From NCBI GenBank assembly GCA_015501595.1, contig JADNRX010000095.1:1-64000 (forward strand): 64,000 nt of DNA. The letters are read 5' to 3'. The notes under the pieces are model-generated. The model did no database searches. It was not told the origin of the DNA and saw only the letters and a list, made by a program, of their open reading frames with translations. Positions 43,483 to 64,000 of this stretch are shown here, one piece after another; within the stretch, counting starts at the first letter, position 1, and every line of letters starts with the position of its first letter. The DNA is from Hymenopellis radicata. Lineage: Eukaryota > Basidiomycota > Agaricomycetes > Agaricales > Physalacriaceae. The translations under genes and the position numbers were made by a program.

Positions 43483-44454
43483 TACACACGTGGGTGGCCG
43501 GTCCGTGCGGCGTGCGTTGTCCCTCTCTTCCTCCACCTTCATTGACGTTGACGTTCACAAGACGTTCAAGATCAACAAAGTCGTACACTCGGGTTGACTG
43601 ATGGCTTTCTCTCAATGCGTGTATCGAGTATCATTCTTAGCTCGTCATGCATTTCCACGGCTCCATCATTACGCGTCTGTTTGGACTGAACTCAAATACT
43701 TTTCCAATAGTGGCAATCAAAGGTGTGTATCTACTACCTCTTCTGTCGTGACATATACTTCTGCTAGATAATTTTGTCTTCGTTGCCATCGTCGGGAGGC
43801 GTGTCTTTCAAATTTCTACACCAAACGTATGAGATGTGGCGCCTTGTAACGAATACGACGAACTCAGTAGCCACGAGGCCCCCTCCATTGTTCCTAGAAC
43901 AAAATCGGGTTATCTTGTGGCAATCGAGGCTACGAGACGCATGGTTTATATCCCGAAGGTCTGCGTTTTATGCGACTAGAAATCTGCATTTGTCTGCTCG
44001 ACGACAGACAGCCTTATTCACCGCCTGAAACTTCAGCTTGAGTCCCCTATATTTTTGGGAACAGGGAGCAGCTGCCTCGAATTACGTCAAGTCGTGTAAC
44101 TGCGTACGCCCATCTTCTTCTCAGAACATCAAACGTACTGACTAGAACGGACAGATTGAGGCAAAAGAGCACTTTTTCGTGACCCATATAGAAACATTAA
44201 GCTCTGTTTTCTGCTCTCCTGTCTAGATGCCTTGATATCATGTGCTATCTTTTGTGAGAATGAAAACCACCCCCGTTCGTCGTTGGCCTCATGCGAACTT
44301 ATGCTGAAACACGTTGGTCAGACTGCGCCTTGTGGGGTAAGATTTCGTAACTGTTGTGGGGACCAAATTCAGCGCAAGGCGGTTTATCGGCAGCTGGATT
44401 TCCTCGGGGTAGCATTCTCTGGCCACGCAGCATCCCCCTGATATTTCCTCAGCG

Positions 44455-44463
44455 TATAAAAAG
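44455..44463 (+). promoter_or_regulatory. TATA box of GH16 copy 1
   Basis: TATAAAAAG, conserved at 52841-52849 in the duplicate. It is 117 bp before the Met here and 72 bp before it in copy 2; copy 1 has an extra CCTTCC-rich insert in between. Confidence 0.6.
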
Positions 44464-44571
44464 ACTTGCGATGGCTCCGTAAAAACTCCAGATCTGTGGG
44501 ACCGTGCCCTGTATCGACTTCCTTCCTTCCTTCCACATTCCTTGTTTTATCTTCGGTATCACTGGGTCGTC

Positions 44572-46037
44572 ATGTTGCCTTCATCATCCAGTGCTGTTGC
44601 TCTCTGTTGCTGGCATCCCTGGCCTCCCCAGTTGTCGGTGTTTCTTATGTTCTTACCGACAGCTATGTTGGCTCTAGCTTTCTTTACGGCTTCGCCTACG
44701 ATGCCATTGCGGACCCAACTAGCGGTAGAGTGTATGTTGATGTCCGTCACAACCAATTCTCTTGCTTATGCTCAACAGTGTCTACGTCGACGCCGCCACC
44801 GCTGCCGCTCAGAACTTGACCTACGCGTCGAACGACACCTTCATTTTACGCGCTGATGACACCACTGTTTTGAGCGCATCTGGTCCTGGACGTAACTCTG
44901 TACGACTCAAGTCGACCAAAACATTCAGCAATGGAGTCACAGTGTACGAACTTGACATTCGGAGTAATCACTCTGCTTAACATCGCTTCAGTTTCAACAT
45001 TCGACACATGCCGCAAGGATGCGGGTTCGTCCTTCCTTCCCTTTTTCTCTGGGAGGACGCCTAACAAATTGTAGGACCTGGCCGGCAGTTTGGTCGTACG
45101 CTGAACCTTGGCCGAGTTTGGGTGAGATCGATATTCTTGAGGGCGTAAACGATCAAGCGTATAACCAAGCGACACTGCACACGTCGACTGGTGAATATCT
45201 TTTCGTATTTTCAGAAAAGCTCGAACGTTGATAAGAATTTCGTACCAGGTTGCACGATGCCCGCATCCCGGGACGAGACTGGGTACCTCCATTTTGACTG
45301 TGTGTTTGATCCATGCTAAGAGGTTTCAAGCGTTCCGCAACAAAACGACTGTGATGTGGCAGTTGACGGCAATCCTGGATGCGGTGTTCAGCTACAGAAC
45401 ACAGCAAGCTATGGTCCTCCTTTCAATGCTAACGGTGGAGGATGGTGAGTTGTTGACTTCGTAGACATAGAGCGTACCGCTGAATGCTTTGTGAAAAGGT
45501 ATGCTGTGGAGAGAACCGATACTTACATCAAGTTTTGGTTCTGGGCAAGGAATGATGCAAGCGTTCCCGTTGGTGTACGTGATGGTAATGGCGATGTTGA
45601 TACAGCAAACTGGGTACGTTGGACTTTCGCTCCTTACGTGCGACCACTCACGCCACACAGGGTACCCCGTTCGCCTACTTCCCCAATACCTCATGTGCTA
45701 TCCCGCAATTCTTTGGCGCACATAACATCGTCATAAATCGTAAGGAAGCTCAGTTTATTTGCGCCGCATCCGCGAACTAACACTACCGTTAGTGACGTTC
45801 TGTGGGGACTGGGGTCAGTCGTACATTCCTTCTCGAGAGTAATTTTAACAACTAACCACCACGCAGCCGGCAGCGTCTACGGAAACTCCAGCTGTCCATC
45901 CACTTGTATCGGTCAGTCGCGCAGAAACCTTTGACATCTCTGCATATGCTCATTCTTTGTCAGACTACGTGAACAACAATCCTGCGGCGTTCACCGATGC
46001 CTACTTCGACTTTGCTTGGATTAAGCAATATGCATAG
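44572..46037 (+). CDS. secreted GH16 beta-glucanase, copy 1 (signal peptide frameshifted)
   Basis: Eleven exons placed (44572-44731, 44779-44943, 44992-45024, 45075-45190, 45249-45282, 45331-45444, 45499-45613, 45661-45739, 45793-45813, 45867-45911, 45964-46037). One G is missing at about 44600 compared with copy 2, inside the signal peptide (SSSSAVA|LLLASLASPVVG); restoring it gives 318 aa. The catalytic motif GEIDILEGVN (E-x-D-x2-E) is intact, with flanking GTWPAVWSYAEPWPSLG. Later parts: DVAVDGNPGCGVQLQNTASY, YIKFWFWARNDASVPVGV, SCAIPQFFGAHNIVIN, DFAWIKQYA. GH16 enzymes of this type cleave beta-1,3(4)-glucans, in wall remodelling or nutrition. It differs from copy 2 at scattered residues. 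Whether it is functional depends on that one base. Confidence 0.83.
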
Positions 46038-46589
46038 AAAAGAGAGAAATCGAGCAGCACCGTTCGTAGGCTCGCAGGCGTGTCTACCAATTGTAGTTTG
46101 AACTCTGCGTGGTGAAATATATCATTCATTATACCCTCTACGCCTGAGCCTGAAGCTTTGAGCCTGGCCTGAAGCTTGAACCGTCTATTCTTGGAGGTGT
46201 CGGCATCTCGGCTAGTTCTCTTCCTTCTACCACCAACACCTAACGCGTTGGACATCTGTTATTCATCCCCTGTCGTAGGAATCTACCGATGCGATAGCTT
46301 GTTTACGACTCGAGTTGAGGAACGGGTCATGGTGTAACGAATGCTCCTGTATCGGCGGCTACGCGCCCGGCTGGTAGCGGTGCGCATCAACTTGACTTAG
46401 CCGTATTGTGTTCGTCGTATCCGGCCATCTTCTCTTCTCTGACACTCTTAGCTTCGCATCAAGATGGAATAGCCATTTTGGTTATGTCAATTCGCAAACT
46501 AGAGGCTAAAATCCAACTCTCTTTTCACTCTTGGCATGACATCGGACTGCGGTGTTCGCAAGACACGCGCCATTGACGCCAAGTAAACG

Positions 46590-47400
46590 GTACTACATGT
46601 GCAGTGGATGATGGGCTGTGTTCCGGCCAGGTGTGCCTATACGTGCTTTCTTCTGTCTGTCATATACACGCGTCGAGATGGGGAAGACTTATACCGTCTT
46701 GGTCGATGATAAGTTCCTCACCTGGAAGGGCAACTCGGAGCTCTTCATCAACAGCAGCACCCACGACGCCGGCAGCGATGGACTTTCTTTCTTGTACTCC
46801 TTCTACGGTGCAGTGTTTTGTTCCAAGTCGAATACACGAGGCTGATAAATCGCCTTGGCAGGAAAGTCGATGGCATGGACTGGTGTGCTGTGGGAGACAG
46901 GTAATGTCCAATTTTCAATCTCTGTCCGGAAGCCGTCAATATGTTCTTCTTCCAGTGGAGATGAGGACGCCAACGTCTACGCGCAACTCTGTCAGACCTC
47001 TTTCGACGACAATGGACAACATACTGTAAACGTGACGGTCCTCGTCGCAAAGCCGGAAAGAGGACGAGTGCGTTGCCATTATCCACAATGAGACGACAAA
47101 AGAATTTGTGTCCAAATACTGCTCGTAGGACCCTAAGTGTCTCTTCCACGATCGATACTCGAATAGATACGCGTTTCGGGTGGAAGGTCACGGCCGGAAG
47201 CAAGATTGGCAGCGACAAGCTAAGTCTTTTCCAGATCAAAGTTCGTGTCCTCGAGCGGAATATTCTCTGCTGTAGATGCAGGCCTCTCAACAAACAACAC
47301 CATCCCAGTAACGTTGACGCGCGAAGGAAAATGGACGATATCACAACGGACGACTCATGGGAATAACCACCTGCATAAATACACGAAGGAGAGGAAGGCC
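46590..47400 (+). pseudogene. truncated start of single-pass membrane protein (ectodomain)
   Basis: Fragments: VEMGKTYTVLVDDKFLTWKG in one frame, and after an apparent acceptor (TTCTTCCAG) GDEDANVYAQLCQTSFDDNG, QHTVNVTVLVAKP. The same text opens the membrane-protein gene in copy 2, after which copy 1 departs from it near 47036. No transmembrane helix or coiled coil follows, so the gene is cut by the boundary of the duplication. The frame is broken several times. Confidence 0.55.
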
Positions 47401-47689
47401 AGTCGCGTTCTAACTTGAACATCCGCCCTTCGTCGTCGGCACAATCTTATCGCCTCCTACTCATCGTTGTCCAGCATCCATTTCCTAGAAGCCCGAGGTC
47501 GCGGTTGTTGACAGTGGGCTGACAGCGTTCGAAGGTCGTGGCCAGGGTGGATTAGAAATAACGAATCCCAGCACTACAGATATCGCGACTGCAGCATAAC
47601 GAGTTTCAGAGACAACACCCTAGAAACGACCGTGTGGCAAAGAGGGTGATGGATTAGTCATATTAAATATAGCTAGATCCTTTAGTTTG

Positions 47690-47742
47690 GCGAGAGAGCT
47701 ACAAGCTTCATCTCGCTCGTGGAAAGGGAGCTGGAAGCTCCA
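47690..47742. repeat. nested-palindrome cluster 1 (2 hairpins)
   Basis: Hairpin 1 (47690-47716): outer arms GCGAGA / TCTCGC around GAGCT-ACA-AGCTTCA. Hairpin 2 (47720-47742): GGAGCT-GGA-AGCTCC with outer TGGA / TCCA. They are direct neighbours. Confidence 0.8.
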
Positions 47743-48584
47743 TCGTGAAATTGATGTTCATTGTCAACAACGCGTGTAAGTACATAGCACACATTTGAAT
47801 GATATTGAAGACGATACAAGTCGCCGGGGCGCAATCTGACTGAATAGGTTTGAGATGCGTGAACTCTCGCGATGCCCGCTAAGGATGAAGCAAGGCCAGG
47901 TATGAGTCACGCTAGGCTGCAGGTCCGACGATGGAGAAGAAAGCAGGTCAGGTCTGTGTTTCGCAACCATGAGTTACGTCGAGGGTCGTACGAGATTGAT
48001 AGCGGCAATTCAGACAGCATAAGGCTATCCTCAAGAGCTGAACAGCAGGCGGACTTCAGGCATCGTCCCACCACAGGCACTGCGCGCGCGTCTCTGGCGG
48101 TAATTCAGACTCATTCGATCAGTTTCCAGTCTTCGACCGACGACTTGTATAACCTTGACTTGCGTACTAACGGAGTCACGTCAAGCTACATCCTCGCTTC
48201 AAGCCAATACAGGCTCTATCAGCGCGCACTTCGAAAGAATGTTAACCGTCTTCCAGCGGTCGTCGTTCTGTACGAACTACAGACCCAGCCCACGAGTACA
48301 ACCCACGGGTACACGCCACGCTACGCAGTGCTCCAAGCAGTACGCGTCGCGATCGAAGAAGCCTGCCAAGCATGATGCATGATGTTTCGATTCAAGAATC
48401 CGAGTTGGCTCCATCAGCGGGGGTGGCCGAAAGGCAAGACGAAGCCATTGCTGCAGTCCGATGCCGGACGGGTCCGTTTCGCAAAGATGTCAAGAGGAAA
48501 GAGAAGGACTTTGGTACAGACTCCGGGTTGGCACCAGCAATTTATGGTGCAAGCGTGAGAGTCAGTTACTCTGCTATAAGCAGA

Positions 48585-48674
48585 TGCAAGAGAGCTAGAG
48601 CTCTATCTTGCAGTAAGGCAAAGGAGCTACAAGCTCGACTAAGCCTGTGTGTAAAGAGAGCTAAAGCTCATCTT
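48585..48674. repeat. nested-palindrome cluster 2 (3 hairpins)
   Basis: 48585-48612: outer TGCAAGA / TCTTGCA (7 bp) around GAGCTAGAGCTCTA. 48616-48646: outer AGGC / GCCT around GAGCT-ACA-AGCTC. 48654-48674: outer AAGA / TCTT around GAGCTAAAGCTCA. A weaker fourth (GGAGC-CGGA-GCACC) follows at 48687-48700. Confidence 0.85.
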
Positions 48675-49484
48675 CGGAGGTACAAAGGAGCCGGAGCACC
48701 ATTATGCGAAAGTCGAGGAATCTTTCACATGCTTCAAGAGCGCCCAAGACCGCCATCCATACGTTACACGTAGCACGTCGCGATTTGACTCGTCGGATCC
48801 CAAAGGCGTGCGTCGAGAGGTAGAGTCCAAATTGTTGCAGTGCCGAAGTCGTCAGGCATCAACGATTCACTGCGAAAGTTCCTGGGAATGTTGACGACGG
48901 TAAACCCACTGGCCCTCGTCCTATCGGTCCTCGAGGAGGCAACAACCACAGTGATGTGCCAAGTGCTTGATCCCAAGAGCCAGCATCAAGTTCATAAAAT
49001 AGAAAGGTCGATGTTGCTGAACGGATGATGATGTCGTCCGAAACTCGTTACCCTCGTCCTGCTAGTCCTAGAAAATGCGACGGCCAATTGAAAAGAGCCA
49101 AAACCTTGATCCTAATGGCGGCGTCAAGGCTCGTCAAGTCAGGACAGTGTCAGACACGGTATCGAAGAACGTTTGATGCTAAGGACCGAAATCTTGGGCA
49201 GCAGAACACATCCAAATAGGACGTCAGTCGCGACGACAGTGGACGAAGAGTGGAAGGTGCCTGGTGAACGAGTCCAGGTTGACGCCGACCGTGGGCTTGC
49301 GGATCGCGATAATGGGTAAAGGACACTTGGCGGCGAATCGAACTCTGTACTGACGAATGATGAGTCTGTGTGGTTCAAGGTTGACGGCGACGCGGGTCGC
49401 ACGAGCAGTTGATAATGTCGCATAAAAGTCAGAGGCTGCATCCCAACCGAATGAGTCTGAGATGCGTAGATGTCCATTAAGTGG

Positions 49485-49560
49485 CACGAGAGCTACAAGC
49501 TGCATCGTGCTAGGCTCAAGAGAGCTAAAGCTCAATCTTGATTGGATGCATCGGAGCATC
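49485..49560. repeat. nested-palindrome cluster 3 (2 hairpins plus one simple)
   Basis: 49485-49511: outer GCACGA / TCGTGC around GAGCT-ACA-AGCTGCA. 49517-49542: outer TCAAGA / TCTTGA around GAGCT-AA-AGCTCAA. Immediately after, a simple hairpin GGATGC-ATCGGA-GCATCC (about 49545-49562) without the shared core. Confidence 0.85.
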
Positions 49561-51017
49561 CATGAGCAGCCGGACTGAGTTATTAGATCACCAGATGCGT
49601 GTCATGCTGTCGAGATCAACCGTTATCATCGTCCAAGTTGTCGTACATCACTGGAAATTCCTCAGACGGCGACCAGCTCCTTCGTCCAAAGATTATTGAT
49701 GCCGGCGTACTACGGTACCGATCCATCGTGGCAGCACATTAGAAGCAGCATCGGCAGAAGGCTAGTGTTGAGGCCAGACGTGAGACGTAAACTGGAAAGA
49801 CATCCTCCAGAATTGTGAGATCCCTTTCTTGCACAAACACAGTGACCAGATACGAAAAGCGCTGGATTCCTTATTACACTGCGGTGATCGGGGGAGAGCA
49901 ACATTGAATTCGAGCGTATCTAACACATCTTCCAAAGAACCCCAAAACCCATCCTCTTCGAATAATAGCACTGTTAGTTGGGCATCGGGAGCGACAGATG
50001 GGTCCAGATATCCTGGTAAGTCGTCCTCAACATGGTTACATGCTAGGGCAAGCGAGCATGAATGCGCTATAAGGCGGCAGCCAAGAGAGTCGGAGACTGG
50101 TTATCCAAGTAGTCGGGCGCGAAGCGCATCATTAAGGCCAGGTGCCACATAATACAGCTGGTAAGGGCAGTGTTGGATCGACGCCGTGAGCGGTACAAAA
50201 CGTCGCGCCGACAATGATGGGACAGCTTGCAGCACGACACCGTCCACCACGAGACTGTAGGTTAACAGCGACGCAGGATACAAGAGCGCGATGATGATCC
50301 TGCGGAATGAGCGGGAAAATGAAGGTGCTGGCAGCATAATTTGCGTCGGAGGTTGGGTCAAGTTGATAGCAATTCCGACAGCATGACCCTGCGAATACCA
50401 TGAGAGGAGTCTGGTACGAGACTCCGTGTAGACATCGCCAGCTTCGGTAGGCGGATGACGGAGTATACGAGCCTGCAGTGCTGATGCGCCCACCAGAATC
50501 GGAAGGGTTTGAACTCGAAGCTTGAATGCGAAGGCGCCTGAACCGGCGATGCAAGCAGCACGACCTGCGCCAGTCGATGAAGGAGACTGGGAGGCAACAA
50601 TCCAGTGAGTATCCGTCTGCGGATGGTATTGATGTCGCGACGGCCCCGAGACGGTAACGAAAGTGTCGATTGAAGCGGCATGGGATTGAAGTGCGAGGTC
50701 GCTGAATAGCGGGGATATGAAGGCACCGGTAGGACGCTTGACGAGAGGCCTGGAGCCAACGTGCAAGTGGGATGCGTAAGGACAGGCCATGTTGAGGTCG
50801 CGACAGATACACACGATGGTGCAGACGGATAGTGGACGTGGAGATTCCGAGCTAATCCTGGCAGTTGGTAGGCGAATCCGGATGACTATAGGGAGACACT
50901 CGAGGTAAGCGTGCACGGGGATGCGAAGACGCGCACGGAGACTTGAGTGGAGACCGTAGGTGATTCATGGGTTGTGATGGCCGTGGTCACCACACTCGTA
51001 ACAGTCGTGGTGCGCAT

Positions 51018-51221
51018 ATGGGAGCGACATGCTCAACCATGCAAGTATACAAGAGAGCTAGAGCTCATCTTTAAGGGTACAAGGGAGCGACACGCTCGAC
51101 CATGCAAGGTGGGAGAGAGCTAGAGCTTCATCTCCAAGAGGGCTAGAGCTCATCTTTTAAGAGCGCAAGGGAACTGGAAGCTCCATGATGCAAATAGTCG
51201 GGAGCTAGCAGCTCAACCGAC
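51018..51221. repeat. nested-palindrome cluster 4 (6 hairpins)
   Basis: 51018-51040: ATGG / CCAT around GAGC-GACAT-GCTC. 51051-51071: AAGA / TCTT around GAGCTAGAGCTCA. 51083-51100: GAGCG-ACA-CGCTC, where both core arms have changed together. 51112-51135: GGAGA / TCTCC around GAGCTAGAGCTTCA. 51136-51156: AAGA / TCTT around GGGCTAGAGCTCA. 51197-51221: GTCGG / CCGAC around GAGCT-AGC-AGCTCAA. They are spaced only 10-40 bp apart. Confidence 0.85.
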
Positions 51222-52840
51222 ATGATATCCTCCGGGAAGCGGTGAAGTCCTGGGTGTCCCCACCACTGTGAATCGAGCGTCCGATTCCACCCAGTTCTAG
51301 GACCTCTCCGCTCGGAGGATACGTGTATGACCTGTCGGAAGGTCGCGTGGCCGTAGGCGAGGCGCGTCGGCGCGTAAGACGGGGCGTACGGCGGACATGA
51401 GAATGGTCGTAAAGGTCGTACATAAGGGTGCACACTGTAACCCAGAGGCTGGGAGCTTGTCACCCGAGCTCGGGGAGCCGTTCACACGAGTGCTCAGCGG
51501 GCCTGGCGTGTCGATTATCGAAATACAACGTAAAAGGAATCAAAGGATTAATCCATCAACGGGAACAAGACGTGAGAGAAACAGACTGAAGACAACGACG
51601 ATGATAATTCTAACTAACTACTGTGACACGAACAAACGTATATGGAAGATATTACTAATCTACCTTCCCACGATTCCGACCATATCACCTACACACGTGG
51701 GTGGCCGGTCCGTGCGGCCGAGCTCGTTGTCCCTTGATTCTCTCTCTTCCTCGGACCTCCACAACTCGTTCATTGACGTTCAACTTCAAGCAAAGGTAGA
51801 TCAACAGAGTCGTACACTGTTGACTGATGGCTTTCTCTCAAATACGCGTATCGAGTATCATTCTTAGCTCGTCATGGCGGTAATTGATGTCGCCATTTCC
51901 ACGGATCCATCATTACGCGTCTGTTTGGACTGAACTCAATACTTTTCCAATAGTGGCAATCAAAGGTGTGTATCTACTACCTCTTCTGTCGCCCTCATGA
52001 CGTGTACTTCTGCTAGATATAATTGTGTCTTTGTTGCGTCGTCGGGATGCATGTCTTTCCTACACCAAACGGGATATGAGATGTGGCGCCCTGTAACGAA
52101 TACGACGGACTCAGTAGCCACGAGGCCCCCCTCCATTGTTCCTGGAACAAAAGTTATCTTGTGGCAATCTTGAATCGAGGCTACGAGACGCATGGGTTAT
52201 ATCCGCAAGGTCTGCGTTTTATGCGAGCATTTGTCTGCTCGACGATTATTATCATGTGGTTTAGTATCGGCGAGTCTAGTATTCTTCCGTTCGCGTGGCC
52301 ACGTTCGGAAGTCGGATCTACGCGCGACATTTAAGCACATACGTTCATGGTTCTATCATGTGAAGATACGTACATGCGGGACGAAGCCTATTCACCGCCT
52401 GAACTTCAGCTTGAGTCCCCTGTATTTTTGGGAACACGGATCAGCTGCCTCGAATCACGTCAAGTCGCGTAACTGCGTACGCCCATCTTCATCTCAGAAC
52501 ATCAAACGTACTGACTAGAACGGACAGATTGAGGCAAAAGAGCACTTTTATATAGGAACATTAAGCTCTGTTTTCTGCTCTCATGTCGAGATGCCTTGAT
52601 ATCATGCGCCATCTTTGTGGGAATGAAAACAACCCCCGTTCGTCATTGGCCTCATGCGAACAGCCTGGTTGTTATGTTGGCAGCTATCACCTGGAACACG
52701 TTGATCAGACTGCGCCTTGTGGGCTAAGATTTCGTACCTGTCGTGGGGACCAATTCAGCGCAAGGCGGTTTATCGGCAGCTGGATTTCCTCGCGGTAGCA
52801 TTCTCTGGCCACGCAGCATCCCGCTGATATTTCCTCAGCG

Positions 52841-52849
52841 TATAAAAAG
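52841..52849 (+). promoter_or_regulatory. TATA box of GH16 copy 2
   Basis: TATAAAAAG, identical to the copy 1 box and 72 bp before the Met at 52913. Confidence 0.6.
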
Positions 52850-52912
52850 ACTCGGGATGGCTCCGTAAAAACTCCAGATTCCTTGCTTTGTCTTCGGTAT
52901 CACTTGGTCGCC

Positions 52913-54379
52913 ATGTTCCCTTCATCATCCAGTGCTGTTGCTGCTCTGTTGCTTGCATCTCTGGCCTCCCCGGTTGTCGGTGTTTCTTATGTTCTTACCG
53001 ACAGCTATGTTGGCTCTAGCTTTCTTTCCGGCTTCGCCTACGATGCCATTGCGGACCCAACTAGCGGTAGAGTGTATGTTGATGTCCGTCACAACCAATG
53101 CTCTTGCTTATGCTCAACAGTGTCTACGTCGACGCCGCCACCGCGGCCGCTCAGAACTTGACCTACGCGTCGAGCGACACCTTCATTTTACGCGCTGATC
53201 ACACCACTGTTTTGAGCGCATCTGGTCCTGGACGTAACTCTGTGCGACTCAAGTCAACCAAAACATTCAGCAATGGAGTCACAGTGTACGAACTTGACAT
53301 TCGGAGTAATCACCCTGCTTAACATCGCTTCAGTTTCAACATCCGACACATGCCGCAAGGATGCGGGTTCGTCCTTCGTTCCGTTTTTCTCTGGGAGGAC
53401 GCCTAACGAATTGTAGAACCTGGCCGGCAGTTTGGTCATTTGCTGAACCTTGGCCGGGGTTGGGTGAGATCGATATTCTTGAGGGCGTGAACGATCAAGC
53501 ATATAACCAAGCGACACTGCACACGTCGACTGGTAAACATCTTTTCGTATTCTCAGAACAACTCGGACGCTGATAAGAATTTCGTACCAGGTTGCACGAT
53601 GCCCGCATCCCGGGACGAGACTGGGTACCTCCATTTTGACTGTGTGTTTGATCCATGCTAAGAGGTTTCAAGCGTTCCGCTCCAAAACGACTGTGATGTG
53701 GCAGTTAACGGCAATGCGGGATGCGGTGTTCAGATACAGAACACAGCAAGCTATGGCCCTCCTTTCAATGCTAACGGTGGAGGATGGTGAGTTGTTGACT
53801 TCATAGACATGAAGTGTACCGCTGAATACTTTGTGAAAAGGTATGTTGTGGAGAGGACCGATACTTACATCAAGGTTTGGTTCTGGGCAAGGAATGATGC
53901 AAGCGTTCCCGTTGGTGTAAGTGATGGTAATGGCGATGTTGATACAGCAAACTGGGTATGTTGGACTTTCGCTCCTTAGGTGCGACCACTAATGCCACAC
54001 AGGGTACCCCGTCCGCCTACTTCCCCAATACCTCATGTGCTATCCCGCAATTCTTTGGCGCACATAACATCATCATAAATTGTAAGGAAGCTCAGTTTAT
54101 TTGCGCCGCATCCGCCAGCTAACACTACCGTTAGTGACGTTCTGTGGGGACTGGGGTTAGTTGTACCTTCCTTCTCGAGAGTAATTTTCACAACTAACCA
54201 CCACGCAGCCGGCAGCGTCTACGGAAACTTCAACTGTCCATCCACTTGTATCGGTCAGTCGCGCAGAAACCTTTGACATCTCTGCATATCCTCATTCTTT
54301 GTCAGACTACGTGAACAACAATCCTGCGGCGTTCACCGATGCCTACTTCGACTTTGCTTGGATTAAGCACTATGCATAA
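52913..54379 (+). CDS. secreted GH16 beta-glucanase, copy 2 (intact), 318 aa
   Basis: Eleven exons (52913-53073, 53121-53285, 53334-53366, 53417-53532, 53591-53624, 53673-53786, 53841-53955, 54003-54081, 54135-54155, 54209-54253, 54306-54379) close exactly at 318 aa. A signal peptide MFPSSSSAVAALLLASLASP is followed by SYVLTDSYVGSSF and a jelly-roll typical of GH16 laminarinase-like enzymes. The catalytic nucleophile and acid/base are expected at Glu137 and Glu142 with Asp139 between, in GEIDILEGVN. A Cys-containing loop (CDVAVNGNAGCGVQ) and the C-terminal DFAWIKHYA follow. Likely substrate beta-1,3(4)-glucan, at the cell wall or outside the cell. It is the undamaged member of the duplicated pair. 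Confidence 0.9.
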
Positions 54380-54939
54380 AAAAAGAGAGAAATCGAGCAG
54401 CACCGTTCGTAGGCTCGCAGGCGTGCCATGACATGTATACCAATTGTTGTTTTATCTCTCCGTGGTGACATAGTGGTGGAATATATAATTCATTATACCC
54501 TCTACGCCTGAAGCCTCAAGGCCTGAACCGTGAGCGCCATTCGTCAGTATCTATTGGTGTCGGCATCTCGGCTAGTTCTCTTCCTTCTACCACCAACACC
54601 CAACGCGTTGGACATCTGTTATTCATCCCCTGTCGTAGGAATCTACCGATACGATAGCTTGTTTACGACTCGAGTTGAGTACCGGGTCATGGTGTAACGA
54701 ATGCTCCTGTATCGGCGGCTACGCGCCCGGCTGGTAGCGGTGCGCATCAACTTGACTTAGCCGTATTGTGTTCGTCGTATCCGGCCATCTTCTCTTAGCT
54801 TCGCATCAAGATGGAATGGCCATTTTGGTCATCTCAATTCGCAAACTAGAAGCTAAAATCCAATTCTCTTTGGACTTTTGGCATGACATCGGACTGCGGC
54901 GTTCGCAAGACACGCGCCATTGACGCCAAGTAAATGGTA

Positions 54940-56393
54940 CATGTTCAATATGTTCTTCTTCCAGTGGAGATGAGGACGCCAACGTCTACGCGCAACTCTG
55001 TCAGACCTCTTTCGACGACAATGGACAACATACTGTAAACGTGAACGTCCAGCACGACGAGGACGATAGCGTCCCTTGATTACATCGTCTTCACGGTCGA
55101 GACCGATGACGCTGTCCCTCGAGTGTCTCTCCGGGCATGTATATCTTTAATCGACGCGCTTCTTATGCTCCACATTGCAGGACCAAGCGTTTCGCTTTAT
55201 GGTGTTCAATTACTCACCGACGGGTCTCTCACGGCGACAGTGGACATCGACGGGACGTCCCACCGGAATATGTCTATCAGTAACCAGAGTGCCGATGGAG
55301 GCACGAATAGACTGTTGGCTTCTGCATCTGGTCTCTCTTCCACTACGCATGAGATGGTCGTTACCGTCACTGACATCTCTGGAAACCATTGATAGTAGAC
55401 TATCTCCTGCACGAACAAGGCTGGTGTGCATGCATCATTGAAATCAGTACTCGACAGACTGCCTCTGATATCAGTCCCTTTAGGGTCCGGAGGATCCAAA
55501 GGATGGGTTGCAGGGGTCGTGATCGGCGTGCTGGCTGCGCTGGCTCTCGTAGCGACTTTTGTCTGGTGGTTCTGGAAGCGAAACACAGACACCGTGGTGG
55601 ACCGCTAGAAATATACCGATCCGGTGAGATATTAATCCTCCATTAACAAGTTTCACAGCGCTATACTTCGGAGCCTGCCAATCCCGAATCAGCACTGGTG
55701 TCCCTTCTTCACTGGATCATCGCTCTTGGTACGTGCCAACACACAGAGAGTCTCGATGGTGATTCGAGGCAATTCTCCTCTACAAGAGATTATGATTGTA
55801 TACTTTGCCCCGCCCTCTCAAGACCATCAGCGGATACATTCGCCTCAACTGCTCCCCTCGGGGCAGACAGTATGGCGGAGACTTCAATGCCCGCATCTTC
55901 CAGGCTGTTCACAAATGTTTTCACCGTCGGTTACTGCTATCTCGCCTCCAGTGCCACTCAAAAGAAGGACCCGATCAACTCAGACTTTCAATGTATCCTG
56001 TCGAATTGAAATTTGCCATAGGCTTGAAGCTCATGCTTCGGCTTCACCTCCGCGCATTAAGGACGCCATGACAATCGTCGTACTAGTTTAACTTCAATCG
56101 TTTCCTCTCATGCTTCAGACGCAGCTGCTCAATTGGATGCCCTTCTTTCTCAGAATAGGAAAATGGAGGTTATCGCAGCGGCACGGCGCAGATCTAGTGA
56201 TAGCTTCGTGGGTCATGGAAACTCAGAAAGTTCGAGACGGACAACTAGTGATTCCGTTTCGGATACGTTGCCTAGTCCCAGAGCAACATCCCAATCCGCA
56301 GAGCAGACGGAAGACCAATTTGAAGAGCTTCGACGGCGGAATGAGATGCTAGCAAAGGAAGTGGCGCGATTATCCAGTTGCCTCCCATCGTAA
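54940..56393 (+). pseudogene. single-pass membrane protein with coiled-coil tail, several frameshifts
   Basis: Reading across exons: GDEDANVYAQLCQTSFDDNG, QHTVNVNVQHDEDDS, LDYIVFTVETDD, intron, GPSVSLYGVQLLTDGSLTAT, ASGLSSTTHEMVVTVTDISG, IVDYLLHEQ, intron, then SGGSKGWVAGVVIGVLAALA with the helix ending TFVWWFWKRN. The C-terminus is QLDALLSQNRKMEVIAAARR, a Ser-rich stretch and a coiled coil EDQFEELRRRNEMLAKEVAR. This layout (beta-sandwich ectodomain, one helix, basic stop-transfer, coiled coil at the end) is frequent in Agaricomycete surface proteins of unknown function. Single-base shifts are needed near 55078, 55390 and 55608. The 5' end is missing about 350 bp relative to copy 1, so this copy is probably non-functional even if the shifts are errors. 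Confidence 0.6.
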
Positions 56394-61242: not shown

Positions 61243-64000
61243 TTAAGCCGTGCGACTGGGATTCCGAGCCAGTGTCGCGCCGACCCGCTGCGCCTGGATA
61301 CTGCTGAAGCGTTGCAACTCCTCCGGCTTCATCGAGATCTTGCCACCAAAGCCGACCTTGCGGGCAGCACGCTTGATGAACGACACACGGTTGGAGTACA
61401 GGGATTCATGGATCGAAGCAGCGCGGGACTGTGTGCGGGTCATCGGAACACCTTCAGCAGCATCGTGTTGAGCGGCGGCGGCGGCGGCCTTGGCGTGACG
61501 GTCACGGAGGTATTTGATAACAGTGGCCTTCATTCCGAACTTGATGAAGTCAAGAGGGAAGAACCAGATGATGTTCTGCACAAACCATTAGAAGGTAGCA
61601 ACAGGAGATGAGAAGATGCAAAACGTACCCAAACCCAAACAATACCGATCCAACCACCAGAGATAGCCCTGATGTTAGTGAAGCCCCAGTCACCGTACGC
61701 GGCGATGATGGAAGACACGAGTTGGGCCAAGCAGAAGGCACAGAAGAGAGCGGCGGAAGGACGCTCCATGAAGAAGAAGCTGTGCGACCGAGTAACGAAA
61801 ATCAAAGCTTGCGAGATAATGGCAACTTGGAGGTAGACGACCATGTGGAGTTGAGGGTCGTTGGCCACGACGGGGGAAGTCTCGAGCGCGACGCCGAACT
61901 TGTCCTGGAAGAAGGTGGTCTCCATAATGATGATGACAAGGGCGATCCTGTCGGAGTTCAGCAAAAGAAGGAGCGAAACTGGAGGAAATACTCACGTCGA
62001 CAGGGTAAGGTACAAACCATAGGCAACAGCGTAGGCGAAAATCTCAGCAAGATCCCAACTGTCTGGTGTCATCGAGGGGAGCACGCGGTCAACAGACAAG
62101 GTCATGATGGTACCGTCGTTAAGGAGGGCGATAATCAGAACCATGAACGGAGGGAAGTCGAATTGGTAGGCGAAAGCAAGGATGGCGAAGCAGACGACAA
62201 TACGAATAGTGACAGCGCAGGCGTAGATGGAGTAGTTCCTCATACGTTGGAAGATGATACGAGAACCACGAATGGCGTGGACGATGGTAGAGAGACCGGG
62301 CTCAGTCAAGACGATGTCGGCGGCACCACGGGCAGCATCAGTAGCACCCTCGACGGCAATACCGACGTTGGCACGAGACAAGGCGGGAGCGTCGTTGGCA
62401 CCATCACCAGTCATGGCGCACAAGTGACCCAAACCCTGCAGACGCTTGACGATCTCGTACTTGTGCTCGGGGAAGACACCAGCAAAGCCATCGGCATCCA
62501 TGATCATCTCGTCCAAAGAGCGGTGCTTGGAACCGGGAGCAGGTCCGTCCTTGAGAACTTTGGCGGGGTACATGTGGTCACCAAGACCAAGACGACGACC
62601 AGTTTCCTTTGCGATGGCGAGCTGATCACCGGTAACCATCTTGACCTTGACACCAAGAGCCATAGCGTCGTCGATAGTCTGCTTGGTGTCCTCACGGGGG
62701 GATCGAAGATGGCAAGCAGACCAATAAGCTCAAAGCCGTTACCCTCAGCCTCGAAATCATCGCCGTCAACCTCTTCGTAAGCGACGGCGAGAGCACGGAG
62801 ACCACGGGTGGCGTACTCCTCGACATCAGCCTCCAACTTGTTCTCGAGTTCCTCGGTCTTGTTACGGGTGCAGAGCTCAATGATGATACCAGTCATACCC
62901 TTGGTGACGCGCTTGAGTTTGCCAGTGGCTTCCTCACGGTAGGTGATTTCCGTGCGCTTGTCAACAGGGTTGAAGGGCTTGAAGTCGAGGAGTTTGATAC
63001 CGGCACGGGCGCGGGCAGTGTCTCCGATGGCCTGAACAACGGACATGTCGATGGCATCCTGATTCTCGGTACGGGAAGCGTAGGCAGCGAGGAGGATGAC
63101 GTCGTCGGGGGAGAAGGAAGAGTAGGTGCGAATAGTGTCCTTGTCAATGGTAAGCTTATTGGTGGTAAGAGTACCGGTCTTGTCAGAGCACAAGATGGTG
63201 ACACCGGCCAACTCCTCGATAGCAGTGATACGAGTGACGATAGCCTTGTGTTTAGCGAGCTGCTGAGCACCGACAGCGAGAGTGACGGAAAGGACAGTAG
63301 GCATAGCAATGGGGATACCACCGATCAAAAGGACGAGGATGTTATCAAGACCACGACGGTAGGTGTAGTGGAACTTGGGGTACAAGATAACGATCTCGAG
63401 GAAGACGAAGAGACCAATGGCGATCAAGCAGAAAGACCCGATTTGAGCCAAAATCTTCTGCAAATGACCGGTGGTGTCGTCGTCCTGGCCGACGAGGGAG
63501 GCGGCACGACCGAAGAAAGTGTTGGCACCGGTAGAGATGACAACACCCTCCGCTTCACCCTGCTTGCAAGTGGAGCCACTGAAAATGATTATGAGCAATC
63601 GACACGATCACGGGAACGAGAGAAAACTTACGAGAAACACTGGTCTCCGCTCTTCTTGGATTGAGGCAGGGATTCACCCGTCAAAGCGGCCTGGTCGATA
63701 GACACGTTGATGGCCTCAGTGAGACGGCAATCGGCGGGTACAATGTCACCAATTTTGAAAGACACCATATCACCGGGAACGAGTTCGGAAGATTCGATTT
63801 CAGACCAGGTGCCAGCACGCTTGACCTTTGCTTTGGGTGCAAGGGAGTCCATGAGGGCCTTGACGGCATTACCAGCGTTACGCTCCTCGTAGAAACCAAT
63901 GGCAGAGTTGATGAAGAGCAGGAGGACAATGCCGACGAAATCTTGCCAGTCAGGAGCGCGACCTTCACCGTTGGAAAGGGCGATAGCGACAAGGGCGGCA
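61243..64000 (-). CDS. PMA1: plasma-membrane H+-ATPase (P3A-type), 5' part outside window
   Basis: Pumps protons out of the cell using ATP and sets the membrane potential. Exons read: edge-63632, 63578-61996, 61947-61629, 61575-61243, with introns of 48-53 bp. Motifs in order: [28 protein letters not shown] (actuator TGES), [17 protein letters not shown], the phosphorylated Asp in [51 protein letters not shown] (hinge), and the C-terminal tail with [20 protein letters not shown], the autoinhibitory region of fungal pumps. A C6 run at 62696-62701 (FDPP|REDT) is one base short and breaks the frame. In an essential pump this is most simply a homopolymer sequencing error. The N-terminal residues lie beyond 64000. 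Confidence 0.95.

What the first reader, a model, noticed from the sequence alone, without database searches (positions are those of the whole stretch)
47690..51221. Clusters of nested palindromes with a fixed GAGCT...AGCTC core and outer stems that vary but stay complementary
At least eleven short hairpins lie in four clusters. Seen directly: the core GAGCT-(1-3 nt)-AGCTC, often followed by A, is nearly constant, while the outer arms differ and still pair: GCGAGA/TCTCGC, TGCAAGA/TCTTGCA, AGGC/GCCT, AAGA/TCTT, GCACGA/TCGTGC, TCAAGA/TCTTGA, GGAGA/TCTCC, GTCGG/CCGAC. In one case both core arms changed together (GAGCG-ACA-CGCTC). Such covariation suggests either selection for structure in DNA or RNA, or a copying mechanism that regenerates palindromes, such as insertion of the core into pre-existing palindromic sites of NNNNGA|TCNNNN type. 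I know no named nuclear fungal element with this pattern. Possible readings are a hairpin-type miniature mobile element, a series of structured small RNAs, or processing sites in one long transcript. The function is unknown.
Basis: seen in the sequence. Interest (0 to 1): 0.78.

Follow-up and report, generated by a model that had tools for sequence, protein, structure and literature searches.

The report
Hairpin arrays in a mushroom retrotransposon
The nested palindromes are RNA hairpins repeated along the RNA of a jumping element that seems to carry no genes of its own, in a mushroom genome; evolution has kept them folded, and they may be tags by which a helper element's shell protein picks up that RNA.

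Summary
The hairpins are real. A covariance model finds 12 in the window (E <= 2.3e-4), all on the minus strand at 47689-51223; nothing else is below E = 0.66. 1000 dinucleotide shuffles gave no full hairpin. They belong to a truncated LTR retrotransposon (about 47036-51689), very probably of the mushroom Hymenopellis radicata. No gag or integrase was found in them: large non-autonomous (LARD-like) elements with 9-24 hairpins each. In aligned hairpins 43 pairs changed on both sides yet still pair, ~2 expected. A sister LTR lineage, with gag and integrase in two members, has the same architecture with another core (GCTATGAGC). Three gag-bearing relatives hold two hairpins each between LTR/PBS and gag, the retroviral packaging-signal position. 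Best reading: lineage-specific packaging/Gag-binding signals, amplified in non-coding parasites. Selection on structure is well supported; packaging is inferred (about 50%).

The parts
47036..51689 (-). Truncated non-autonomous LTR retrotransposon remnant; left boundary somewhere in 47036-47208, 5' LTR at the right
   Evidence: Similarity to 11 other elements; homology of the flanking gene copy ends at 47035
51267..51689 (-). 5' LTR (sense orientation); right end read by eye (CACC instead of CACA)
   Evidence: 71-91% identical to LTRs on 12 other contigs, in pairs on 11 of them; for termini
51248..51265 (-). Primer binding site TGGTGGGGACACCCAGGA, perfect 18-nt match to the 3' end (+CCA) of a tRNA gene (Phe by my reading of the anticodon); one spacer base 51266
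51195..51223 (-). Leader hairpin 1; core starts 64 nt from the LTR junction
   Evidence: CM hit E 6.4e-6; spacing
51164..51192 (-). Degenerate leader hairpin
   Evidence: E 1.9 only; seen in sequence
51110..51137 (-). Leader hairpin
   Evidence: E 7.6e-7
51078..51106 (-). Leader hairpin with GAGCG/CGCTC core
   Evidence: E 4.3e-6; GAGCT/AGCTC at the aligned place in C537
51048..51074 (-). Leader hairpin
   Evidence: E 4e-6
51015..51043 (-). Leader hairpin
   Evidence: E 1.8e-5
49515..49542 (-). Internal hairpin
   Evidence: E 8.9e-8
49483..49511 (-). Internal hairpin (not among the sequences that built the model)
   Evidence: E 1.1e-4
48651..48677 (-). Internal hairpin
   Evidence: E 2.3e-4
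48617..48645 (-). Internal hairpin
   Evidence: E 3.7e-6
48585..48612 (-). Internal hairpin, TGCAAGA/TCTTGCA stem
   Evidence: E 8.2e-8
47721..47749 (-). Internal hairpin
   Evidence: E 1.1e-4
47689..47717 (-). Internal hairpin, GCGAGA/TCTCGC stem
   Evidence: E 9.6e-8

Best explanation
The palindromes are RNA stem-loops carried in many copies by the genomic RNA of a large, apparently non-coding LTR retrotransposon family (LARD-like) of Hymenopellis radicata. Each has a near-constant apical stem-loop, a 1-2 nt bulge on one side and a freely varying but complementary basal stem. Shown by computation: element identity, transcript strand, conservation and compensatory change. Inferred: a Gag (or other element-encoded RNA-binding protein) of a related autonomous Ty3/gypsy-like element recognises the constant apical core plus bulge, and the basal stem only has to be paired. 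A few such hairpins in the 5' leader mark the RNA for packaging in autonomous elements; the non-coding parasites carry arrays of 9-24, the first core 64-65 nt from the LTR junction, which would raise their capture by the helper's Gag. Different LTR lineages use different cores, as a lineage-specific recognition code would.
For: Identity: paired ~400-bp TGTG..CACA LTRs; 5-bp TSDs read by eye in 6 of 9 elements with both flanks in view; PPT-like and PBS junctions. No coding seen: longest stop-to-stop frame 339 aa in 12 elements; gag tblastn over the 12 elements gives one chance-level match (E 0.70); genome-wide gag and Integrase_H2C2 searches list no class-1 contig (only best candidates are scored there). 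Density: 254 cores, 142 full hairpins in 109 kb of element against 21 and 0 in 220 kb of flanking strands. Selection: 43 two-sided changes kept against ~2.3 expected, 9 pairs broken; hairpins half as divergent as their surroundings (5.1% against 9.9% in HSPs >= 300 bp, 39 of 49). LTR pairs are 100% identical in 6 of 11 elements, two of these over partial LTRs, although LTRs differ by 9-29% from the window's: divergent lineages kept hairpins while still moving. Position: first core 64-65 nt from the LTR junction in 12 of 12 elements. Gag-bearing C225, C672 and C607 hold two hairpins each in the leader. Lineage code: 46 of 51 GCGCTATGAGCAGC sites lie on five contigs with related LTRs and the same PBS, two with gag and integrase.
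Against: No binding, expression or particle data. No gag-bearing element with the class-1 leader was found: GGGAAGCGGTGAAGTCC has 14 hits, 12 in class-1 elements and 2 one-mismatch hits elsewhere. Leader hairpins were seen in 3 of the 10 contigs with a gag match, plus C686/C707 by class-2 sites; the other gag-bearing leaders were not read. Whole-segment folding is only modestly better than shuffles (z -1.8, -1.3, -1.9), and the RNAalifold covariation term is small (-1.61). The strand test is mixed: wobble-type single changes at basal pairs 1-4 favour the sense RNA 61:11, pair 5 goes 8:20, the apical closing pair is G-T on the other strand in 32 of 152 unique hairpins, the shuffle test of the difference is not significant, and mean MFE hardly differs by strand. 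The gag-position protein has no Pfam match, only chance-level PDB matches (E 1.2) and no usable fold. Element pairs are not independent.
Confidence: 0.52

Rival explanations
1. The hairpins bind a host protein and act in RNA export, stability or translation control of the retroelement RNA (like constitutive transport elements), not in packaging.
For: Dispersed structured repeats fit stability or export too; conservation and compensation do not tell which protein binds.
Against: Two lineages in the same host use different cores, which fits an element-encoded partner better than one host factor. Non-coding RNAs need no translation.
Confidence: 0.17
2. The hairpins are RNA dimerisation or genome-compaction elements: self-complementary GAGCU..AGCUC arms let any hairpin pair with any other.
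For: Near-palindromic cores, leader position, 32-nt spacing mode.
Against: Class-2 cores GCTATGAGC have only a 3-bp arm and an ATG loop; the recurrent bulge and loop suggest a protein. Dimerisation and packaging may be one function.
Confidence: 0.13
3. DNA-level palindromes, as transcription-factor sites (like Sirevirus RM boxes) or cruciforms.
For: Sirevirus LTRs hold palindromic repeats read as regulatory (PMC2829016, abstract and passages). A cruciform would covary too, and the strand test is mixed.
Against: Hairpins lie in the internal region; no model match up to E 2 in the window LTR. The outer arms vary freely but pair, unlike half-sites. Wobble-type changes at basal pairs 1-4 are asymmetric between strands, 61:11.
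Confidence: 0.07
4. Self-copying miniature hairpins or neutral duplication without function.
For: A 34-nt hairpin unit is tandemly repeated in the leaders of C537 and C712; 28 of 179 spacings are 32 nt.
Against: Neutral copies would break their stems: 43 two-sided changes kept, 72 wobble-type, 9 broken. 70 of 71 pattern sites lie on LTR-bearing contigs and share one orientation per contig.
Confidence: 0.05
5. Small-RNA or Dicer processing sites of a long non-coding RNA.
For: Tandem short hairpins in a long transcript.
Against: Stems of about 11 interrupted pairs are short for Dicer (recalled); no Rfam family at gathering level in 46000-52500 (one match, E 0.46, 20.9 bits against 48).
Confidence: 0.06

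Closest known systems
LARDs (large retrotransposon derivatives), e.g. barley Sukkula; LARDs annotated in Laccaria bicolor
   Same: LTRs, long internal region without gag-pol, presumed helper dependence; [quoted passage not shown] PMC3411680 passages for Laccaria)
   Different: No repeated small hairpin family with lineage-specific cores in the passages seen; 'hairpin' and 'secondary structure' occur 0 times in the Laccaria text. The original 2004 LARD paper is not held
Sirevirus repeated motifs (RM boxes)
   Same: Many copies of a palindrome with a conserved core in LTR retrotransposons (PMC2829016, abstract and passages)
   Different: Ty1/copia of plants, located in LTRs and upstream of env, read as DNA regulatory boxes; 'hairpin' and 'compensat' occur 0 times in that text
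BARE2 parasitising BARE1
   Same: Gag-less element packaged by a relative's particles, keeping packaging and dimerisation signals (PMC3735527 passages)
   Different: Its signals are not described in the passages seen as an array of repeated hairpins
Dispersed packaging signals of MS2 / STNV
   Same: Multiple hairpins along one RNA bound by coat protein (PMC8384211 passages)
   Different: Small ssRNA viruses; not retroelements

Membership tests
LTR retrotransposon | Direct LTRs with TG..CA ends | tested here: met
   (the window copy keeps one LTR, ending CACC)
LTR retrotransposon | 4-6 bp target-site duplication | tested here: met
   5 bp, read by eye in 6 of 9 elements with both flanks; C463 and C794 have exchanged ends, C567 shows none; not testable in the truncated window copy
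LTR retrotransposon | tRNA PBS next to 5' LTR and PPT next to 3' LTR | tested here: met
   18-nt PBS to a tRNA gene (C818 and C88 deviate by a base or two); CCACGATTGGGGGGCAC next to the other LTR in 10 of 11 elements, absent in C774 and in the truncated window copy
Autonomous LTR retrotransposon | gag-pol in the internal region of class-1 elements | tested here: not met
   no gag or Integrase_H2C2 seen. A Pfam scan of translated frames was rejected because of stops; reverse transcriptase itself was not searched
LARD | Large internal region without proteins, recent mobility, structured RNA | tested here: met
   Elements of 4.3-14.4 kb, LTR pairs up to 100% identical, compensatory stems
LARD | Mobilised by an identified autonomous helper | tested here: inconclusive
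   Related gag-bearing elements share the PBS, an LTR block or similar hairpins; no helper with the class-1 leader
Sirevirus RM boxes | Palindromes located in LTRs of Ty1/copia Sireviruses | tested here: not met
   No model match up to E 2 in the window LTR; relatives C686 and C707 carry Integrase_H2C2, a gypsy-type domain by my recollection
Miniature hairpin/MITE element | Occurs alone, outside a larger element, in either orientation | tested here: not met
   70 of 71 pattern sites on 13 LTR-bearing contigs, one orientation per contig. Target duplications of single hairpins were not tested
Dispersed packaging signal | Binding of coat/Gag to the hairpins | not testable with these tools
   Needs biochemistry

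The most novel reading that the evidence does not exclude
LTR retrotransposons of this mushroom use a lineage-specific RNA hairpin code (constant apical core plus bulge on a free basal stem) for recognition by their own Gag, and non-coding parasitic elements have amplified the code to as many as two dozen copies along their RNA, an arms-race-like cheating strategy that I found in none of the listings and passages of ten paper searches.
Probability: 0.42. Interest if true: 0.86.

Novelty: new variant of a known kind. Interest (0 to 1): 0.73.

Why it matters
Packaging signals of most LTR retrotransposons are unknown (my recollection), and how elements without genes hijack a helper is a long-standing question. 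Here many covarying copies per element, and two lineages in one genome with different cores but the same architecture, make a recognition code directly testable with short RNAs and two Gag proteins. It also warns that covarying hairpin arrays in fungal genomes need not be host non-coding RNA genes.

Tried and rejected
Considered and dropped: independent miniature element; DNA-level palindromes; a host lncRNA or small-RNA cluster; Rfam families (one match, E 0.46, below its gathering score). Self-priming of reverse transcription through CCACGATT/AATCGTGG was considered before the tRNA match at the other LTR showed that junction to be the PPT side. The strand wobble test gave mixed results. The gag structure prediction was unusable (mean pLDDT 35). 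Pfam on the gag-position ORF, on its public gene model and on two exon ORFs of the flanking gene gave nothing. Ten paper searches listed no title or abstract describing these elements in Hymenopellis or covarying hairpin arrays in LTR elements; beyond listings I saw only passages of five papers (PMC3411680, PMC3735527, PMC8384211, PMC2829016 with its abstract, PMC7215508), and only an open-licence library was searched. The 2004 LARD paper is not held. Dropped before counts: 18 of 256 cores without a callable bulge; near-identical element pairs C463/C794 and C567/C1162; C42; one truncated class-2 copy.
Full report
WHAT WAS CHECKED. Unfiltered covariance-model scoring of the whole window gives 12 matches with E <= 2.3e-4, all at 47689-51223 and all on the minus strand; the next match has E 0.66. 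Eleven of these 12 were among the 65 sequences from which the model was built. Core plus bulge plus four perfect basal pairs occurs 8 times in the window element and never in 1000 dinucleotide shuffles.

FURTHER COPIES. The asymmetric pattern AAGAGAGCT-N(1-5)-AGCTC occurs 71 times in the 75.5-Mb assembly and its reversed control 0 times. Seventy of the 71 (all but one on C486) lie on 13 contigs, the window's included, that also hold an LTR related to the window's; where a contig has several they share one orientation. One search lists 24 such LTR places on those 13 contigs, in pairs on 11 of them.

THE ELEMENT. Self-comparison shows direct repeats of about 400 bp with TGTG..CACA ends; outer lengths are 4.3-14.4 kb, of which C88 and C1079 are cut by a contig or fetch end. 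Five-bp target duplications were read by eye in 6 of 9 elements with both flanks in view. Two elements (C463, C794) have exchanged ends, as after recombination; C567 shows none. One junction reads CCACGATTGGGGGGCAC|TGTG, a G-rich PPT, in 10 of 11 elements with that end (absent in C774). The other reads TCCTGGGTGTCCCCACCA-C|TGTG, of which TCCTGGGTGTCCCCACCA equals the 3' end plus CCA of a tRNA gene: one search found 24 matches to the tRNA-end pattern, and of three genes fetched Rfam scores two at 55 bits and the third, cut one at 39. The anticodon GAA (Phe) is my own reading; ARAGORN left it undetermined. The window copy keeps the 5' LTR (51267-51689), the PBS and about 4.2 kb of internal sequence, and is cut off at its 3' side next to a duplicated gene.

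NON-CODING. The longest stop-to-stop frame in the 12 elements is 339 aa. A gag tblastn against them gave one chance-level match (E 0.70), and the genome-wide gag and Integrase_H2C2 searches list no class-1 contig (those searches score only the best candidates). Reverse transcriptase was not searched, and a Pfam scan of translated frames was rejected because of stops.

ORGANISM. The 364-aa gag-position ORF of C225 is 99% identical, over 82% of its length, to a Hymenopellis radicata protein whose contig has 141,103 bases, the length of C225. Taxonomy: Agaricales, Physalacriaceae.

STRUCTURE AND SELECTION. In the 12 elements 254 cores and 142 full hairpins lie in 109 kb (hairpin strand), against 21 and 0 in 220 kb of flank (both strands); near-duplicate elements are included. 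Among 65 non-redundant hairpins 94 cells changed on both sides against 46 in shuffles, 0 of 500 reaching it, and 77.8% of cells pair against at most 56.2% when partners are slid; the count of pairs with any two-sided change (7 against 6.7) is no better than shuffles. Eight rows of that alignment carry a leading gap and most are out of register by one column, which counts against pairing. In 245 non-identical aligned hairpin pairs, orthologous or module-related, with near-identical element pairs dropped, 1024 basal pairs were Watson-Crick in one member: 900 were unchanged, 43 changed on both sides and kept, 72 became wobble-type (on one strand or the other), 8 broke on one side and 1 on both; about 2.3 kept double changes are expected if sides were independent. 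Comparisons share elements, so counts are not independent. Hairpin columns are half as divergent as their surroundings: 6.3% against 12.1% in all HSPs (149 of 174), 5.1% against 9.9% in HSPs >= 300 bp (39 of 49); HSPs may be seeded by the hairpins themselves. The leader alignment shows 8 of 58 predicted pairs with a two-sided change, with a small covariation energy (-1.61); its column register between the two leader types is uncertain. Minimum free energies of whole segments are only moderately below shuffles (z -1.8, -1.3, -1.9). Wobble-type single changes at basal pairs 1-4 favour pairing in the sense RNA 61 to 11, but pair 5 gives 8 to 20. Among 152 unique hairpins the four inner basal pairs show 44 sense-type against 13 antisense-type wobbles, where shuffles expect 92 and 66 (difference not significant), and the apical closing pair is G-T on the other strand in 32. 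The strand test is therefore not decisive; the strand rests on the PBS, the PPT and the genes of relatives.

RELATIVES. A second core, GCGCTATGAGCAGC, occurs 51 times in the genome (control 1), 46 of them on C158, C224, C686, C707 and C824, all five with the related LTR block and the same PBS. In C158 (17 copies in 4.1 kb read, 16 usable) the basal stems again vary and pair beyond shuffles at pairs 4-6. C686 and C707 encode gag-like sequence (31% identity to the C225 gag) and Integrase_H2C2 on the predicted sense strand between their LTRs; three hairpins of each fall inside the gag-homologous stretch. C225, C672 and C607, which match gag (10 contigs match), hold two hairpins each between PBS (C225, C672) or LTR block (C607) and gag, such as GGCGGAGCTAGAGCTACACGCC and GGCAGAGCTATAGCTGCATGCC in C225, which differ by a two-sided change of one basal pair. 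Nine places have at most one mismatch to that pattern and six are these leaders; with two mismatches the search is at control level (25 hits in all, 19 in the control). Leaders of the other gag-bearing contigs were not read.

INTERPRETATION. In all 12 class-1 elements the first core starts 64-65 nt from the LTR junction and four or more lie within about 250 nt, which is where retroviral packaging and dimerisation signals lie (established knowledge). Leader position, lineage-specific cores with a shared architecture, freely varying basal stems, and amplification in elements without genes together favour recognition by an element-encoded protein such as Gag. Multiplication by local tandem duplication is visible: a 34-nt unit present once in the leaders of the window, C463, C794, C1079 and C88 is present twice in C537 and at least three times in C712, and 28 of 179 successive spacings equal 32 nt, 72 being at most 45. 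What is not shown: binding, packaging, expression, or an autonomous helper with the class-1 leader (one search found that leader in 12 class-1 elements plus two one-mismatch places of unknown nature).

KNOWN KINDS. It meets the tested features of a large non-autonomous LTR retrotransposon. The nearest published motif system met here is the palindromic RM boxes of plant Sireviruses (PMC2829016, abstract and passages), which sit in LTRs and are read as DNA elements. Multiple packaging hairpins are known in MS2 and STNV (PMC8384211, passages). Gag-less BARE2 is packaged by BARE1 (PMC3735527, passages).

Noticed in passing
43538-47035 and 51769-55044: Tandemly duplicated gene (93% over 2089 bp, 100% over the last 100 bp) flanking the element remnant; a GEIDILEG motif by eye suggests GH16, but Pfam on two exon ORFs was negative.
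   Followed up: partly
C463 81.7-90.9 kb and C794 6.8-16.2 kb (L024, L025, L034, L035): Two elements with exchanged target duplications and 89% LTR pairs: likely recombination between two copies, or an assembly chimera.
   Followed up: partly
C1162 135.8-140.7 kb (L041, L042): About 4.9 kb extra sequence relative to C567, holding a TPR-like ORF (by eye).
   Followed up: no
L043 464-1102: C158 element contains sequence 85-93% identical to DNA outside the element on C818 (95.2-96.0 kb): possible capture of host sequence.
   Followed up: no
C25:114386, C158:20483, C823:14138: Hairpins of the form GGCAGAGCTAGAGCTCGATGC[CT] outside the elements studied: perhaps a third hairpin lineage.
   Followed up: no
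61992-63607, minus strand: P-type cation ATPase gene (E1-E2 ATPase and hydrolase domains).
   Followed up: no
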